Below, piece by piece: positions 4,705-35,775 of a stretch of 64,000 nt of DNA (positions are counted from its first letter, which is position 1; the number at the start of each line of letters is the position of its first letter). Below the pieces are notes generated by a model. The model was not told the origin of the DNA, did no database searches, and saw only the letters and a program-made list of their open reading frames with translations. The position numbers were made by a program, and so were the translations under genes. This DNA is from Colwellia maritima (lineage in GTDB: Bacteria > Pseudomonadota > Gammaproteobacteria > Enterobacterales > Alteromonadaceae): NCBI RefSeq assembly GCF_022669015.1, contig NZ_JAKKSL010000004.1, positions 186,001-250,000 on the forward strand, read 5' to 3'.

Positions 4705-5391
4705 ATGGATACGCTAACGCTTGATATACCATTTGATTGTCGTTTTACTTGTTGGTTTTGTGGTGAAGGCTCTTATCAAACTATTGTAACTAGCATATCA
4801 ACACACCAAGATAATTATTTAGTTAACATACCTATTTGTGATGAATGTAAATCTTACCAATGTCATGACGAGGAGATTTCATTAGTCAAACTTGGTAAAC
4901 AGATTAAAGAAAAGATAGTGTTGCGAAGCGCTAAAGCGTTGTCGATAGGCGCTAATTGGACGGAATCAGAATTACAAGAATCAGCGTTAAACGGTAGTGC
5001 ATTTGATGGCTTTAAAAAAAGTGGGCGGCAAATGTATTTAATTGCCAAAGAACGGGTTAATTATAGCGGTTGGGCGTTAAGTGTTGATGGCATACCTATT
5101 GATGCTGAAGATATTTTAGATGATGAAGAATACGAGTTCGACGGGCTTACTTTCACCAGTTTTATAAGTATCCGGATTACCTCAGTCATTCTTTTTCACT
5201 AAATAAAACGTTTTTGAAAAAAGTGTTAATTATTTACGGTAATAATCGAGCAATAGAGGCTGTAAAATTTTGTAGGTTTGGTGCCAAACGACTCAACAAC
5301 GGAACGTGAAAAAGCACTTAATGACTTGATTGAGTCTTTTAGAGAAAAAGAAGTGCTACAATTTGAACAAAAACTATTAAAAATCGAGTAA
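4705..5391 (+). CDS. Hypothetical zinc-ribbon-like protein (frameshifted)
   Basis: I do not recognise this family. The N-terminus has two CxxC pairs (C16/C19 and C45/C48), spaced like a small zinc ribbon, followed by an acidic helical region. The uninterrupted frame stops at 5202. The next frame continues at once with coding-like sequence (YKYPDYLSHSF onward), and a second change near 5276 leads to a tail ending EQKLLKIE at 5391. I therefore read it as one protein of about 228 residues broken by two single-base indels near 5160 and 5276. It follows arfA on the same strand by 77 bases; no functional link is known. Confidence 0.5.
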
Positions 5392-5404
5392 AGCCGAGCT
5401 AAGG

Positions 5405-6081
5405 TTAACTACTAACAACACTTCTGTCAGCTACACGTATTGTTGCTTTAATTATTTGCACCGTTTCTTTGGTTTTGCCTCGTCTACTACCTAATTTTTC
5501 AATTTTAGTCAGAGCATCTTCTACATCAGCGACAACTTCGCCAAAAATAGTATGTTTTCCATCTAGAAAAGGGGTTGCGGTAAAAGTGATAAAGAATTGA
5601 CTACCATCAGTGCCTGCCCCCGCGTTTGCCATGCTTAAAACGCCTGCTTTGTCATGGCTATGCTTACCTGTAAATTCGCCATCATACTTGTAACCAGGGT
5701 TACCTGAACCTGTGCCGATAGGATCACCGCCTTGTGCCATAAATCCCGGAATAACACGATGAAAGGTTAAGCCATCATAAAAACCTAGTTTCGTTAAATA
5801 AATAGTACTTGATACATGCATAGGTGCAGTATCAGAAAATAATTTGATACTAAGGTTACCTTGGGTCGTTTGTAGATCCCAAAAATAGTCTTTACCTTGT
5901 GTAAAGGTAAGTAAGGGAGGGGCAACTAACGTGGTTTTCCAAGCAGGGGCTTTTTTATCGATGGGTTGCTTACTAATAAAATTATCTATTTTTTTTATTG
6001 CTAGATCGCCACCACAACAAGCGGTTAGTGTCGCGCTGAATAAAACAACGGAAATTGTTTTAATAAATTTTTTAAAATCAT
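5405..6081 (-). CDS. Cyclophilin-type peptidyl-prolyl isomerase, predicted lipoprotein (frameshift near start)
   Basis: The mature part is a cyclophilin PPIase: FHRVIPGFMAQGGDP, GVLSMANAGAGTDGSQFFI and FGEVV are the classic active-site blocks. An ATG-initiated frame begins only at 5821, but the same frame is open upstream and encodes a signal peptide with a lipobox (LTAC followed by CGGD) and a linker, so the true protein is longer. The best start is the ATG at 6081 with AAGG upstream; it is one base out of frame because of an apparent missing base in the T/A run near 6066-6078. The predicted protein is a periplasmic lipoprotein of about 225 residues that catalyses prolyl isomerisation of exported proteins. 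Confidence 0.8.
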
Positions 6082-8647: not shown

Positions 8648-8711
8648 ATTTTATCAACGCGAATTGAGATGATTTCATCTGTCGAGATTTCATCGACTAA
8701 AAACTAGTAAT

Positions 8712-30746: not shown

Positions 30747-31350
30747 ATGAAATTTAGCCCATTAGTACAAGAACTTATTGATGCTTTGAAATGTTTACCT
30801 GGTGTTGGGGCTAAGTCTGCCCGAGCGCATGGCCTTTCAGTTGTTAGAACGAAATCGTCGTGGTGGTAGTAAGCTTGCAGCAACCTTAGCTGTAGCAATG
30901 ACTGATATTGGTCATTGTCAATCCTGTCGGAATTTTACCGAACAAGATTTATGTGAAATATGTCAAAGCCCTAAACGAAAAATTGCCACAACGTTATGTG
31001 TTGTTGAAAGCCCTGGCGATGTGATTGCTATAGAACAAACGGGGGAATTCGGTGGGAAATATTTTGTATTGATGGGGCATCTATCTCCCATTGATGGCAT
31101 AGGACCTGATGATTTAGGTTTAGATATTTTAGAAAATCAATTTGCGTCAGGGCAATTTGAAGAAGTGATTTTAGCTACTAACCCGACGGTTGAAGGTGAA
31201 GCCACGGCACATTTTATTGCTGAACTGGCACAAAAATATCAAGTAACTATTTCTCGTATTGCTCATGGTGTTCCTGTTGGTGGTGAACTTGAATATGTTG
31301 ATGGTAATACTTTATCTCATGCATTTTCAGGCAGAAAAAATTATTTTTAG
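30747..31350 (+). CDS. recR: Recombination mediator RecR (frameshifted)
   Basis: RecR works with RecO (and RecF) to load RecA on single-stranded gaps. The helix-hairpin-helix (LPGVGAKSA), the zinc finger ([17 protein letters not shown]), the Toprim domain ([15 protein letters not shown]) and the C-terminal [19 protein letters not shown] are all clear. An extra G near 30820-30824 (GCCCGAGCGC instead of GCCCAGCGC) splits the frame just after KSA. Corrected, the protein is about 200 residues, normal for RecR. Its last nine codons (AFSGRKNYF) are found again 2.2 kb downstream, beyond a two-gene insert and before htpG. Confidence 0.92.
31319..31350 (+). repeat. Direct repeat, recR 3' end (left junction of insert)
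   Basis: The last 32 bases of recR. They match 33527-33558 at 28 of 32 positions, with an identical 15-base core ATGCATTTTCAGGCA. Three mismatches are silent or in the stop codon, and one changes R to K. Confidence 0.8.
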
Positions 31351-31549
31351 ACCGCGATTATAATCATAAGAACGAATTGTAGGCGAATTTAGTCGCGCTG
31401 AGTAAACTTTTATTTTCTTTTTTTAATATAGGTGATATCTTAGCGAGTAGAATTAATGGTAATTTAATTTTCAAGTTATTAAAAGAAGGAGCCTTTTTGT
31501 AATTTTAAAACCAATGTAATAATACTAACAATATGATAAGGAAATCAGT

Positions 31550-32476
31550 ATGTCTACATATGCAAGATCCACCATTGCCGAAAAACAGCGTCAACATCAG
31601 ATCCACAAGGCAATCAAAAATAACCAAGACACCCTTGTTCAAATGAACAGCCAAGAATTTATCGATTATGTGGTTCACACACTGCGCTTACAAGGTAAAG
31701 TACAACAACAAATCATCGAGTGGTTCGAGAATGCGTTTCAAAAAGCAGGTGTGAACCCACAAAACTGGGAACAATACAAAGCAAGCATTAAAACAGGTAC
31801 AGGCTTTATTCCATGGGGAGTCGATGTGGTGGGACTTGGCGCTATTGCGTTAGAAATGAAACGCGACGGAAACACCTTCTCCAAATATTACGTTAAAACT
31901 TATAATGGTAAGCCTAATGTGGTGTTTAAAGGTTATTCAGGATTTCGTAAACATTTAACTGGTACCAAATACCTAGCAAGTAACCCAAAAGTGGTGTCAT
32001 TCGGAATAGGTAAACTTGGTGTTGCTAAATCCATTAAAACCGGTTTTGTTGTAACAGTGATTATTTCTGCGACCTTTCATGCTTTTGAACAAATGCTAAA
32101 CGACCAAGCCACTTGGCATGATTTTGTTGGTGGTATGGCGGTTGATGTTGGTATCGCCGCGGCAGCTTCAGGCATTGCTTGGGGGGCTGTAGCCACTTAT
32201 ATTGGTGGTACTGTGGCAATGGCTGCGGTGGGGCCGATGTTGGCGGTAGTTGTAGTGGGCGCTGCATTGATGATGCTCACGACCGCATTTGTTGATTCGG
32301 ACGCATTGTCTAAAAATCTTGCGGATAGTTTACGTGAAGCTGAGCAACAGTTTAAACAAGGCTTGTTAAACGTACAGTATGAAATTAATCGGGTAGAGCG
32401 TATGTTTGATGCCGATCCCATCGGTTTTATACATCGTTTATTCGGTATTCCGTATTTTGGAACTCAGTTTCGATGA
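31550..32476 (+). CDS. Putative membrane-active toxin/effector
   Basis: I do not recognise a named family. The 308-residue protein has a charged helical N-terminal half (about residues 1-75). A conserved-looking middle follows: VFKGYSGFRKHLTGTKYLASNPKV, about 126-150. Then come long hydrophobic segments (about 163-180 and 192-248, rich in Gly and Ala) and a charged C-terminal helix. It has no signal peptide. Hydrophobic hairpins in an otherwise soluble protein are typical of colicin-like and type VI pore-forming effectors. The next gene overlaps it by four bases and encodes a small membrane protein, as toxin-immunity pairs do. AAGGAAATCAG precedes the start codon. Confidence 0.5.
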   Translation: MSTYARSTIAEKQRQHQIHKAIKNNQDTLVQMNSQEFIDYVVHTLRLQGKVQQQIIEWFENAFQKAGVNPQNWEQYKASIKTGTGFIPWGVDVVGLGAIALEMKRDGNTFSKYYVKTYNGKPNVVFKGYSGFRKHLTGTKYLASNPKVVSFGIGKLGVAKSIKTGFVVTVIISATFHAFEQMLNDQATWHDFVGGMAVDVGIAAAASGIAWGAVATYIGGTVAMAAVGPMLAVVVVGAALMMLTTAFVDSDALSKNLADSLREAEQQFKQGLLNVQYEINRVERMFDADPIGFIHRLFGIPYFGTQFR

Positions 32477-33056
32477 AAGACGCAATAGAGGTTTGTTCTA
32501 AGCCTATATCCCCCTTGCAAGGAGGGGTATTTATTACGTTATTATTAGGGTGTGTGTTTGCATTAGTGATGACGGCTTTGAATGAGTTTGCCATGCTAGA
32601 ACATATTAAAGAGGGGGTGGCGTTAGTGAAAGTACGCAATGTTGTGTTTCCTTTATTAAGTATGGTTCCGGCATTTTTGGTATTAGCGTGGGGGATTGTG
32701 CATCAAGTGAAACAAACTATGACCGTTGAAAAGCAAAAAAAAGGCTTGGTTTTCATTGGGGGCAGTTTTCCTGTCTTTCTTTTGGTATGGCTCATTTATA
32801 ATTCCCAAGTGATGGGTGGCTAGAATCACAAGGCTATTCTCAATGCACTTGGTATTCAGGTGCATCAATGGGGGCTGCGAAAGTGATGGTGAGTAAGCGT
32901 GAATTTTGTATTAAAGAAGGCTATCAAGTTCGTATTGATTTACTCGACTGGTTTGAAGCACAGCACCAATCAGGGCAGAAAACCACAGTGGAACAGGCTC
33001 GAAATAAACAGTCTGAACTATTAGCTAAATATAAAGAGCGGTTTGATTTGCTGTAA
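32473..33056 (+). CDS. Putative membrane immunity protein (frameshifted)
   Basis: This protein has three transmembrane segments (about residues 18-39, 57-79 and 91-110) and a C-terminal extracytoplasmic part with two spaced cysteines (GYSQC ... KREFC), followed by a charged tail ending KYKERFDLL. A one-base indel near 32800-32815 splits it; reading through gives NSQV/DGWLESQGYSQC and a length of about 194 residues. The cysteine-bearing loop after three membrane segments recalls DUF1240-type and other pore-toxin immunity proteins; this is a resemblance from memory. Its ATGA overlap with the upstream gene shows coupled translation. Confidence 0.5.
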
Positions 33057-33526
33057 AGTATAAATATTAACTAACTTTCATTCATTTTTCGTTCTTCCTT
33101 TGAGTGTGAGCTAGTTTTATGTCATTTTAAATAAGACTTTAAATTATTATGATAGAAGAATTAAACTCGTGCTTAAACATGAGGTTAATTCTTCGACTAA
33201 AGCGTTGGTATGACGCCTCCCGTCAAGTTAAATGCACTGATCTATGCTCAATAAATCAGAGCCATATTGTTCACTTCTCAATTAAGTGAGTTAACGCATT
33301 AGATGGAGTAAGTAAATTTGTCGGTTATCATGCTGATATACCTGGATTATTAAGCTGTTGGCTAACTGCGTATACCTTATTTATTCCATCGTGACACCTA
33401 TTCGGGTGTTGGACAAGTCCGGAGTCTGCTTTATATAGTAAATAAGGGTGAAGGAGTTACGATCAATTGCTTGATCGCAAGGCGCACTAAGCTAAGCTGT
33501 GAAATAGTTTGGTTTTTCGCCTTTTA
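33057..33526. other. Noncoding, hairpin-rich part of the insert
   Basis: No gene is visible. Several inverted repeats occur: GAAGAATTAA/TTAATTCTTC (33158-33200), CCTTATTTA (33373-33381)/TAAATAAGG (33440-33448) enclosing smaller hairpins, and a perfect CGATCAA-TTGC-TTGATCG (33460-33477). They could be recombination sites, a small RNA or a terminator region. Confidence 0.4.
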
Positions 33527-33558
33527 ATGCATTTTCAGGCAAAAAAAACTACTTTTAA
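33527..33558 (+). repeat. Direct repeat, second copy of recR 3' end (right junction)
   Basis: It encodes AFSGKKNYF and a stop codon in a frame matching the RecR C-terminus AFSGRKNYF. The similarity stops abruptly upstream of the ATGCATTTT core, which marks a recombination junction. Confidence 0.75.
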
Positions 33559-33681
33559 TGCGCCTTCCTGTGTTGTTAGTAAGTATTAAGTGATTAATTG
33601 AAATGTTTAAATATATATGATTTATTGATTATAAAAAAACTGAGATTATTTGAGTTTTTTTATCTAAAGTTCATCCTTCCC

Positions 33682-33709
33682 CTTGAAAAAAGTTAAACCA
33701 TCCTCAGAT
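33682..33709 (+). promoter_or_regulatory. Sigma-32 heat-shock promoter of htpG
   Basis: CTTGAAA (33682-33688) is a perfect -35 for sigma-32, followed after 13 bases by CCTCAGAT (33702-33709). It is 106 bases before the htpG start and lies outside the insert. Confidence 0.72.
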
Positions 33710-33815
33710 ATGTAGCAACAAGTGTTCTTCGTTTGAATCACTTAGATTCAAGTCAATCTAGGAGAACAGTTATCAAATTAGTTATCACATTGTAAAAATA
33801 AGTAGGAATTATCAC

Positions 33816-35775
33816 ATGACAATTGAAAAAGAACCAGTAAATCATAAGTTTGCGTCAGATAACGCTAAGATACTTCAACTAATGATCCACAGTCTTTATT
33901 CTAATAAAGAAATTTTCTTACGTGAGTTAGTATCAAATGCAGCAGATGCTTCAGATAAACTACGTTTTAAAGGTTTATCTAATGCTGATTTGTTTGAAGG
34001 TGATGGTGAGCTAAGAGTTCGTGTTAGTTGTGATAAAGAAAACAACACAGTGACTATTTCAGATAACGGCATAGGTATGAACCTTGATGAAGTTGTTGAA
34101 CATTTAGGTACTATTGCAAAATCAGGTACGGCTGAATTTTTCTCACAATTATCGGGTGACCAAGCGTCTGATTCACAATTAATTGGCCAATTTGGTGTTG
34201 GATTTTACTCTGCGTTTATCGTTGCGGATAAAGTGACTGTTCGTACGCGTCGTGCAGGTGATGATGCCTCTGAAGGTGTTGAATGGGTGAGTGCAGGTGA
34301 AGGTGAATTCACTACTGCTAAAATCAATAAAACCAACCGTGGTACTGATATTATTCTTCATCTAAAAGAAGAAGAAAGTGAATTTGCTGATGAATGGCGA
34401 TTAAAGTCAATTGTGACTAAATACTCTGATCACATTTCTGTTTCTGTGGAAATGTTAACGCCTGAAGTTCCTGCTGTTGAAGCCGTTGCTGAAGAGAAAG
34501 ATGATGAAGGCAACGTGACTACGCCTGCAGTAGAGGCACGAGATGCAATCGACCAAATGGGAAGCTATTAACAAAGCAACTGCATTATGGACTCGTGAAA
34601 AAGCAGATATTTCTGATGAAGAATACAATGAATTTTACAAACATGTATCCCATGACTTTGGCGACCCATTATTATGGGAACACAATAAAGTAGAAGGTAA
34701 AACTGAATATACTTCGTTGCTTTATGTGCCGGCAAAAGCACCATTTGACATGTACAACCGTGAAAAACAGCATGGTTTAAAACTCTATGTTCAACGCGTA
34801 TTTATTATGGATGACGCTGAACAATTTATGCCGACGTATTTACGTTTTGTAAAAGGTTTGCTTGATTCAAATGATCTACCGTTAAACGTTTCGCGTGAAA
34901 TTTTACAGGATAACAAAGTTACCCAAGCCATTCGAAAAGGTTGTACTAAACGTGTATTGAAAATGCTTGAAAAATTAGGCAAAAATGATGCTGAAAAATA
35001 TCAAGGTTTTTGGGATGAGTTTGGACAAGTATTAAAAGAAGGCCCGGCTGAAGATATCTCTAATAAAGAGCAAATTGCAGGGTTATTACGTTTTGCTTCA
35101 ACCAATGAAGACAGTGCTGTGCAAAACGTGTCGTTAGCTTCGTATGTTGAGCGCATGAAAGAAGGTCAAGATAAAATTTATTATGTGGTTGCTGACAGTT
35201 TTGCTGCTGCTAAAAATAGCCCGCATTTAGAAGTTTTCCGTAAAAAAGGTATTGAAGTATTATTGATGTCTGACCGTATTGATGAATGGTTAGTCAGCCA
35301 CCTGAATGAATTTGATGGTAAACAACTACAGTCAGTAACGCGTGGTGGTTTAGATCTAGGTGATATGGATGATGCTGAAACGAAAGAAGCACAAGAAAAA
35401 CTTGAGAAAGAGTTTGATGGTGTGGTTAGTCGTATTAAAGAAGCGTTAAAAGGTAAAGTGAAAGAGGTTAAATTATCTCAACGTCTTACTGATTCACCTG
35501 CATGTATTGTAGCCGATGAGAATGATATGAGTAGTCAAATGGCTAAACTGATGGCTTCTGTTGGTCAAGAAGTGCCAGAAACACTGCCTATATTCGAAAT
35601 AAACGGTGAGCATGAGTTAGTTAAGCATGTAGCTGATGAACAAGATGATGATAAGTTTAACCAATGGGTTGAAGTATTATTTGAACAAGCTATGTTAGCA
35701 GAACGTGGTAGTTTAAAAGACCCGGCGAGCTTTGTATCTCGTTTAAATAAATTGATGTTAAGTTTAACTAAGTAA
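33816..35775 (+). CDS. htpG: Molecular chaperone HtpG (Hsp90), frameshifted
   Basis: HtpG is the bacterial Hsp90, which remodels client proteins with DnaK. The N-terminal ATPase domain has [22 protein letters not shown] and [15 protein letters not shown]. The middle domain has [21 protein letters not shown] and [11 protein letters not shown], and a C-terminal dimerisation domain follows. The frame breaks at 34555-34557, where one extra A (CAAATGG for CAATGG) turns DQWEAINKA into DQMGSY. Corrected length is about 650 residues, slightly longer than E. coli HtpG because of an acidic/Val/Ala insertion ([16 protein letters not shown]) in the middle domain. The synteny recR-htpG-adk is kept apart from the insert. 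Confidence 0.94.

What the first reader, a model, noticed from the sequence alone, without database searches (positions are those of the whole stretch)
31319..33558. Two-gene insert between recR and htpG bounded by duplicated recR 3' ends
The 32 bases that end recR (31319-31350) recur at 33527-33558, with 28 of 32 matching and an identical 15-base core ATGCATTTTCAGGCA. The second copy still reads AFSGKKNYF-stop, so it looks like the original recR end displaced by 2.2 kb, while recR was given an equivalent new end. This is the footprint of integration at a gene's 3' end. recR-htpG adjacency is the known ancestral order. The insert carries no integrase, so it may be a cargo-only element moved in trans, and recR would be a new attachment gene for it.
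Basis: partly seen in the sequence, partly recalled or inferred. Interest (0 to 1): 0.85.

Follow-up and report, generated by a model that had tools for sequence, protein, structure and literature searches.

The report
Toxin-immunity insert beside duplicated recR end
A bacterium carries what looks like a toxin-and-immunity gene pair plus scraps of integron and insertion-sequence DNA between two housekeeping genes, and the short copy of the recR gene's end beside it looks more like a scar of imprecise recombination than the docking site of a new mobile element.

Summary
The repeat is real: the last 32 bases of recR (31319-31350) recur at 33527-33558, 28 of 32 identical, well above shuffled controls. 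The interval is an insert: 10 of 32 examined congeners, including the two nearest, have recR and htpG 165-566 bp apart, and none of the 32 has anything near a second recR end (best 21 of 33 matches against 28 here). The insert holds an intact 308-aa gene and a frameshifted partner that resemble the type VI effector-immunity pair Tme/Tmi. Behind them lie truncated pieces: an attI-like site, one end of an IS1111-type insertion sequence, half an attC-like hairpin and an IS91-like tail that stops within about 10 bp of the second recR end. In congener G010 the homologous pair follows an attC-like site in a cassette array. No recombinase was seen in the insert, and six query recombinases/transposases hit none of 40 relatives' recR loci. 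Best reading: DNA carrying the pair recombined at recR by homology on one side and imprecise joining on the other, leaving a remnant recR end. recR as a site-specific attachment gene is not excluded but unsupported. Known kind of event.

The parts
30747..31350 (+). recR, apparent frameshift near 30820; functional-looking 3' end
   Evidence: the 182-aa open part matches in 60 of 61 genomes
31319..31350 (+). recR 3' end, copy 1 of the repeat
31351..31549 (.). leader of unknown origin; no own-genome DNA match, only chance-level matches to congener recR downstream regions
31550..32476 (+). 308-aa Tme-like membrane toxin (type VI effector-like); lacks the K of the DxxK motif
32473..33056 (+). small membrane protein, presumed immunity partner; apparent frameshift near 32825; pieces compared apart
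33138..33206 (+). attI-like site, truncated on the left near 33130, no integrase beside it
   Evidence: the copy in L140 lies between an integron integrase gene and the first ORF
33202..33399 (.). one non-coding end of an IS1111-type insertion sequence; the rest is absent
33392..33411 (+). right half of an attC-like hairpin with GTTGGAC box
   Evidence: fuller copies elsewhere
33412..33520 (+). tail shared with the 3' side of an IS91-like transposase gene
33527..33558 (+). recR 3' end, copy 2 of the repeat (remnant)
33631..33720 (+). weak hairpin with T run and promoter region of htpG, native flank
   Evidence: 33680-33710 aligns to the htpG upstream region of congeners; heat-shock promoter type recalled
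33816..35775 (+). htpG, apparent frameshift near 34550

Best explanation
Foreign DNA carrying a Tme/Tmi-like toxin-immunity pair and integron/IS debris was taken into the recR-htpG gap by recombination anchored in recR on the left (either homology-facilitated illegitimate recombination, HFIR, of a linear piece, or a single crossover of a circular piece that carried a short recR end) and joined imprecisely on the right. Copy 1 is then the end that came with, or was kept by, the intact gene; copy 2 is the leftover of the other recR end. Shown: insert, repeat, mosaic debris, empty sites, cargo family. Inferred: the recombination route and which copy is native.
For: Insert absent in the 10 of 32 examined congeners where htpG follows recR, including G010 and G014, which share two upstream genes with the window. 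The right side is a chain of truncated pieces, each found more complete or in other contexts elsewhere. IS91-like similarity stops at about 33516-33526 and recR similarity starts at 33527; one own-genome copy (L137) reads TTTTTTAATGAATTTTTC where the window has TTTTAATGCATTTTC, suggesting microhomology. Divergence of the two copies (28 of 32 identical) is within that of recR blocks between the window and ten congeners (74-89% identity). Of seven other own-genome debris places tested, none has a repeat at an ORF end across the debris, so the recR repeat looks like a one-off. The gene pair follows an attC-like site in G010. Literature: HFIR joins mostly show 3-10 bp microhomology, and gene-end duplications of 109-950 bp arose by single crossover in the same assay (PMC3240628, passages); HFIR was suggested, with a 'perhaps', for T6SS effector-immunity modules that displace a 3' end in Vibrio (PMC5361080, passages).
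Against: No donor with recR followed by this pair was found. No clear switch of ancestry inside recR. The microhomology rests on one AT-rich copy; the other aligned copies differ there. HFIR products usually carry a deletion, which could not be tested because the native gap is unknown. The repeat ends at the stop codon, which this model does not require. Three of four differences are synonymous (10 of 30 possible transitions would be), which would also fit two recR ends joined by an integrase. Direct repeats across the debris, though not at gene ends, occur in 4 of 6 own-genome debris loci, so a repeat around such debris is not rare and a common process behind it is not excluded.
Confidence: 0.6

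Rival explanations
1. A recombinase-less (CIME-like) integrative element uses the recR 3' end as attachment site and is moved in trans by an integrase encoded elsewhere; the element supplies a new recR end.
For: Direct repeat with identical 15-base core and diverged, mostly synonymous outer part; repeat ends at the stop codon; the genome encodes tyrosine recombinases, e.g. an integron integrase.
Against: In 32 congeners and 7 genomes of other families the best second match to the recR end in about 4-5 kb downstream is 21 of 33, against 28 here; no hit of six query recombinases/transposases in relatives' recR loci; next to copy 2 only an IS91-like tail; the one other exact core in the genome is inside an ORF without a recombinase hit nearby.
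Confidence: 0.12
2. Insertion in place with a roughly 31-bp target duplication, or a tandem duplication of the recR end followed by insertion between the copies.
For: A 31-32 bp direct repeat flanks foreign DNA; copy 2 drifts away from congeners while copy 1 is kept.
Against: None of the element pieces seen is known to me to make a 31-bp duplication (recalled); IS1111 insertions add no bases (PMC11187229, passage).
Confidence: 0.18
3. Assembly or sequencing artefact.
For: Apparent frameshifts in recR, gene 2, htpG and an integrase copy point to base-level errors; contamination estimate 5.71%.
Against: Copy 2 has four differences and lies in a 428-kb contig between a debris tail matched elsewhere in the genome and a native-looking htpG upstream region.
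Confidence: 0.05

Closest known systems
Homology-facilitated illegitimate recombination and gene-end duplication by single crossover (PMC3240628, passages)
   Same: Foreign DNA anchored by homology on one side, imprecise junction on the other, or a duplicated gene end beside the insert
   Different: Here inferred from a fixed, old insert; donor and any deletion unknown; duplication only 32 bp
Displacement of T6SS effector ends by incoming effector-immunity modules in Vibrio (PMC5361080, passages)
   Same: Toxin-immunity pair added, an older 3' end left displaced downstream, HFIR suggested
   Different: The displaced end belongs to recR, a housekeeping gene, not to an effector
Tme/Tmi membrane-disrupting T6SS effectors (PMC7046647, passages)
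   Same: Aspartate motif followed by hydrophobic segments, PAAR-fused relatives, downstream membrane partner, DUF1240 in relatives' partners
   Different: Window protein lacks the K of DxxK; not compared with Tme1 itself
Integron sites and IS1111-type insertion sequences that target attC ends (PMC11187229, passages; Tetu and Holmes 2008 seen only in its reference list)
   Same: attI-like and attC-like sites with an IS1111-type end next to them; homologous pair follows an attC-like site in G010
   Different: In the window the sites are truncated and no integrase lies beside them
CIME, cis-mobilizable element flanked by att sites (recalled)
   Same: Cargo between direct repeats without a recombinase gene
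   Different: No att function, helper or family of such elements seen here

Membership tests
Site-specific integrative element at recR | Same repeat bounding other cargo in relatives | tested here: not met
   Best second match 21 of 33 in 32 congeners and 7 others, against 28 here; three congeners (G021, G022, G035) not examined and one (G030) has only 268 bp downstream
Site-specific integrative element at recR | Empty sites with one recR end | tested here: met
   10 of 32 congeners; also expected under the favoured reading
Site-specific integrative element at recR | Recombinase in the element or at another site with the same core | tested here: not met
   None seen among the ORFs of the insert; six query proteins give no real hit in the window, near the third 15-mer or in relatives' recR loci; unrelated recombinases could be missed
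Integron gene cassette (window copy) | attC directly after the gene(s) | tested here: not met
   By eye only an attI-like site 80 bp after gene 2 and half an attC-like hairpin further on; no attC-finding program was available
Integron gene cassette (G010 homolog, L141) | attC on both sides | tested here: inconclusive
   attC-like site before the pair by eye; the one after it is interrupted at its start
Tme effector | DxxK motif followed by membrane helix in C-terminal domain | tested here: inconclusive
   D in 20 of 20, K in 14 of 20 chosen members; K absent in the window protein
Tme effector | Downstream membrane partner, often DUF1240 | tested here: met
   Partner follows in the window and in 25 of 33 homolog loci by script; DUF1240 in 8 of 19 relatives' partners, not in the window's own pieces, whose match to the family profile is marginal (E 0.004 and 0.013, best shuffle 0.017)
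Tme effector | T6SS association | tested here: met
   PAAR in 2 of 20 family members; VipB matches in the window's genome; secretion itself not testable
HFIR event | 3-10 bp microhomology at the illegitimate junction | tested here: inconclusive
   Suggestive in one of seven aligned copies

The most novel reading that the evidence does not exclude
The recR 3' end is a genuine attachment site of a so far undescribed, integrase-less mobile unit that carries type VI toxin-immunity pairs together with integron sites and is moved in trans.
Probability: 0.1. Interest if true: 0.7.

Novelty: new member of a known kind. Interest (0 to 1): 0.35.

Why it matters
It shows how a gene-end repeat that looks like an integrase footprint can come from imprecise recombination with mobile-element debris, a caution for surveys that call elements from direct repeats. 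It also links a Tme/Tmi-like toxin-immunity family to integron surroundings: in G010 the pair follows an attC-like site. If borne out, integrons would be a route for moving interbacterial weapons.

Tried and rejected
Pfam, PHROGs, PADLOC, NCBIfam and PDB sequence searches of gene 1 gave nothing beyond chance-level matches. Viral contigs: no relative of gene 1. Plasmids: 7 records, each covering at most 33% of the query at 30-43% identity. Rfam gave one match below its gathering score, taken as chance. Deciding which recR end is native from congener downstream sequence failed: neither flank aligns beyond chance; only the htpG upstream region aligns to the right flank. Looking for a change of ancestry along recR-htpG-adk gave no clear breakpoint; the htpG upstream block is nearer to G026, G027 and G012 (71-72%) than to G010 and G014 (56-57%), which I could not interpret. 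Doubled ends elsewhere: in 4 of 6 own-genome debris loci (L135, L136, L138, L139) direct repeats of 24-80 bases do span the debris, none at an ORF end by my test; L137 (two places) and L140 show none. Insertion of cassettes at secondary sites by the integron integrase was considered (search listing only); it does not predict a 32-base repeat (recalled). Paper searches for recR with integrative element, attachment site and integrase, and for recR, htpG, genomic island and insertion, found 0 papers each in the held library. A search listing on IS91 with integrons and one on integrons with T6SS effectors were seen; from the latter one paper was read in passages.

Full report
Observation. recR ends at 31350; its last 32 bases recur at 33527-33558 with 28 matches and an identical 15-base core. 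The next best place in 4.7 kb matches 18 of 33 and the best of 20 shuffles 21 of 33, against 28 of 33 here. The core occurs exactly three times in the genome; the third copy is inside a 414-aa ORF at C2:331259.

Empty sites. The open part of recR was found in 60 of 61 genomes. I took stretches at 40 recR loci: 33 of the 36 congeners listed there, of which G030 has only 268 bp downstream, and 7 genomes of other families. G021, G022 and G035 were not examined. Of the 32 congeners with usable loci, 10 have the start of htpG in the stretch, 165-566 bp after recR; of the 7 others 3 do, at 97-293 bp. In the remaining 22 congeners htpG was not detected within about 4-5 kb, so the adjacency is not general in the genus. 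In the 39 usable loci the best second match to their own recR end is 21 of 33 (L050, L059, L072); that is two above the best of five shuffles of each of these three loci but equals the best of the window's 20 shuffles, and none nears 28. The two nearest by recR and adk, G010 and G014, share two genes upstream of recR with the window.

What the insert holds. 31550-32476 encodes an intact 308-aa protein. The partner at about 32473-33056 is frameshifted; its two pieces match one Photobacterium protein at 34% over 97 columns and 45% over 73. Homologs of gene 1: 3 of 60 relatives and 34 of 393 order-level genomes, own genome not counted; Photobacterium at 56-60%, between genes that look like trkH and yqfA (by eye; the gene is broken by a stop in L081). 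Of 33 homolog loci, 25 show by script a downstream ORF of 131-196 aa with two or more hydrophobic segments. In an alignment of 20 chosen members D199 is invariant and DxxK is present in 14; the window protein has D but not K. Two of 20 carry a PAAR motif and 8 of 19 partners match DUF1240. The window's own partner pieces match a profile of the other partners only marginally (E 0.004 and 0.013; best shuffle 0.017), while the Photobacterium partner matches at 3e-14. This fits the Tme/Tmi description (PMC7046647, passages): DxxK followed by a membrane helix, PAAR fusions, DUF1240-like immunity. I did not compare with Tme1 itself. Another pore-forming family, Ssp4 (PMC12669606, passages), has a marine group and a downstream immunity gene too and was not tested. 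The genome has VipB matches, so a delivery machine is likely present.

The tail. 33138-33206 matches three own-genome places at 75-80%. In L140 the copy lies between an integron integrase gene and the first ORF and ends in a GTTAGCC box, so I call it attI-like; in L139 no integrase ORF is seen beside it. 33202-33399 matches near-full-length copies at 77-83% in congeners and one other genus of the family. In G010 it lies 170 bp from the 3' end of the same IS110/IS1111-type transposase gene in three copies (named by eye), matching the downstream non-coding region of the IS1111 family, some members of which target attC ends (PMC11187229, passages). From 33392 the window matches the right half of a hairpin with a GTTRRRY box; the copies I compared with ORF lists (four in L146, two in L137, one each in L135 and L139) start close to a stop codon. 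It is followed by a shared stretch that in L136 lies next to the 3' end of an IS91-like transposase gene (by eye). Whether the hairpin is an attC or the end of the IS91-like element I cannot settle; one copy in L146 lacks the shared stretch. The window has half the hairpin and about 110 bp of the stretch, and within about 10 bp copy 2 begins.

Cassette surroundings. In G010 the homologous pair (290 and 152 aa) stands after an attC-like site and is followed by the start of another one that is interrupted (by eye). The window pair itself has no attC that I could see.

Mechanism. The competing routes predict different things. An integrase element predicts a recombinase, other occupants and defined ends; none was found, within the limits of six query proteins. 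A target duplication predicts an element known to make about 31 bp; none of the pieces is, to my knowledge. Recombination anchored in recR with imprecise joining predicts a mosaic insert with a bare junction next to a remnant recR end, and divergence between the two ends like that between congeners; both are seen. It has published parallels (PMC3240628 and PMC5361080, passages). Copy 2 being the remnant is supported by its distance from congeners (27 closer to copy 1, 0 to copy 2, 6 ties of 33). The route and the donor remain inferred.

Against my reading: no donor, no ancestry switch in recR, the end of the repeat at the stop codon, microhomology visible in only one AT-rich copy, and direct repeats across the debris in 4 of 6 other own-genome debris loci, though none at an ORF end. 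The last point, found on checking, did not move my odds: of the places tested, the recR repeat remains the only one at a gene end.

Verdict. A real insert and a real repeat; the kind of event and its parts are known. Interest 0.35. The bold reading, recR as an attachment gene for integrase-less toxin-immunity units, keeps about 0.1.

Noticed in passing
L141:6482-7806: Homologs of the toxin-immunity pair follow an attC-like site in a cassette array with IS elements in congener G010.
   Followed up: partly
G000:C2:759948-760895 and C4:376929-377875: Two integron integrase genes in the window's genome, the second split by an apparent frameshift.
   Followed up: partly
L136:2310-4540: IS91-like transposase preceded by a split tyrosine recombinase (by eye), with the attC-like hairpin at its end; similar tails stand beside unrelated ORFs in several places.
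   Followed up: partly
window 33155-33194: The stem of the attI-like site differs from its L139 and L140 copies by changes that by eye keep it paired.
   Followed up: no
G000:C2:331259-331273: Third exact copy of the 15-base core, 18 bases shared with recR copy 1 by eye, inside a 414-aa ORF; probably chance.
   Followed up: partly
window near 30820, 32825, 34550: Apparent frameshifts in recR, gene 2 and htpG suggest residual sequencing errors.
   Followed up: no
L135:4032-4069, 5395-5432, 8667-8704; L139:2588-2667, 5088-5167: Direct repeats of 38 and 80 bases around modules that contain the same integron/IS91-like debris; nature unknown.
   Followed up: partly
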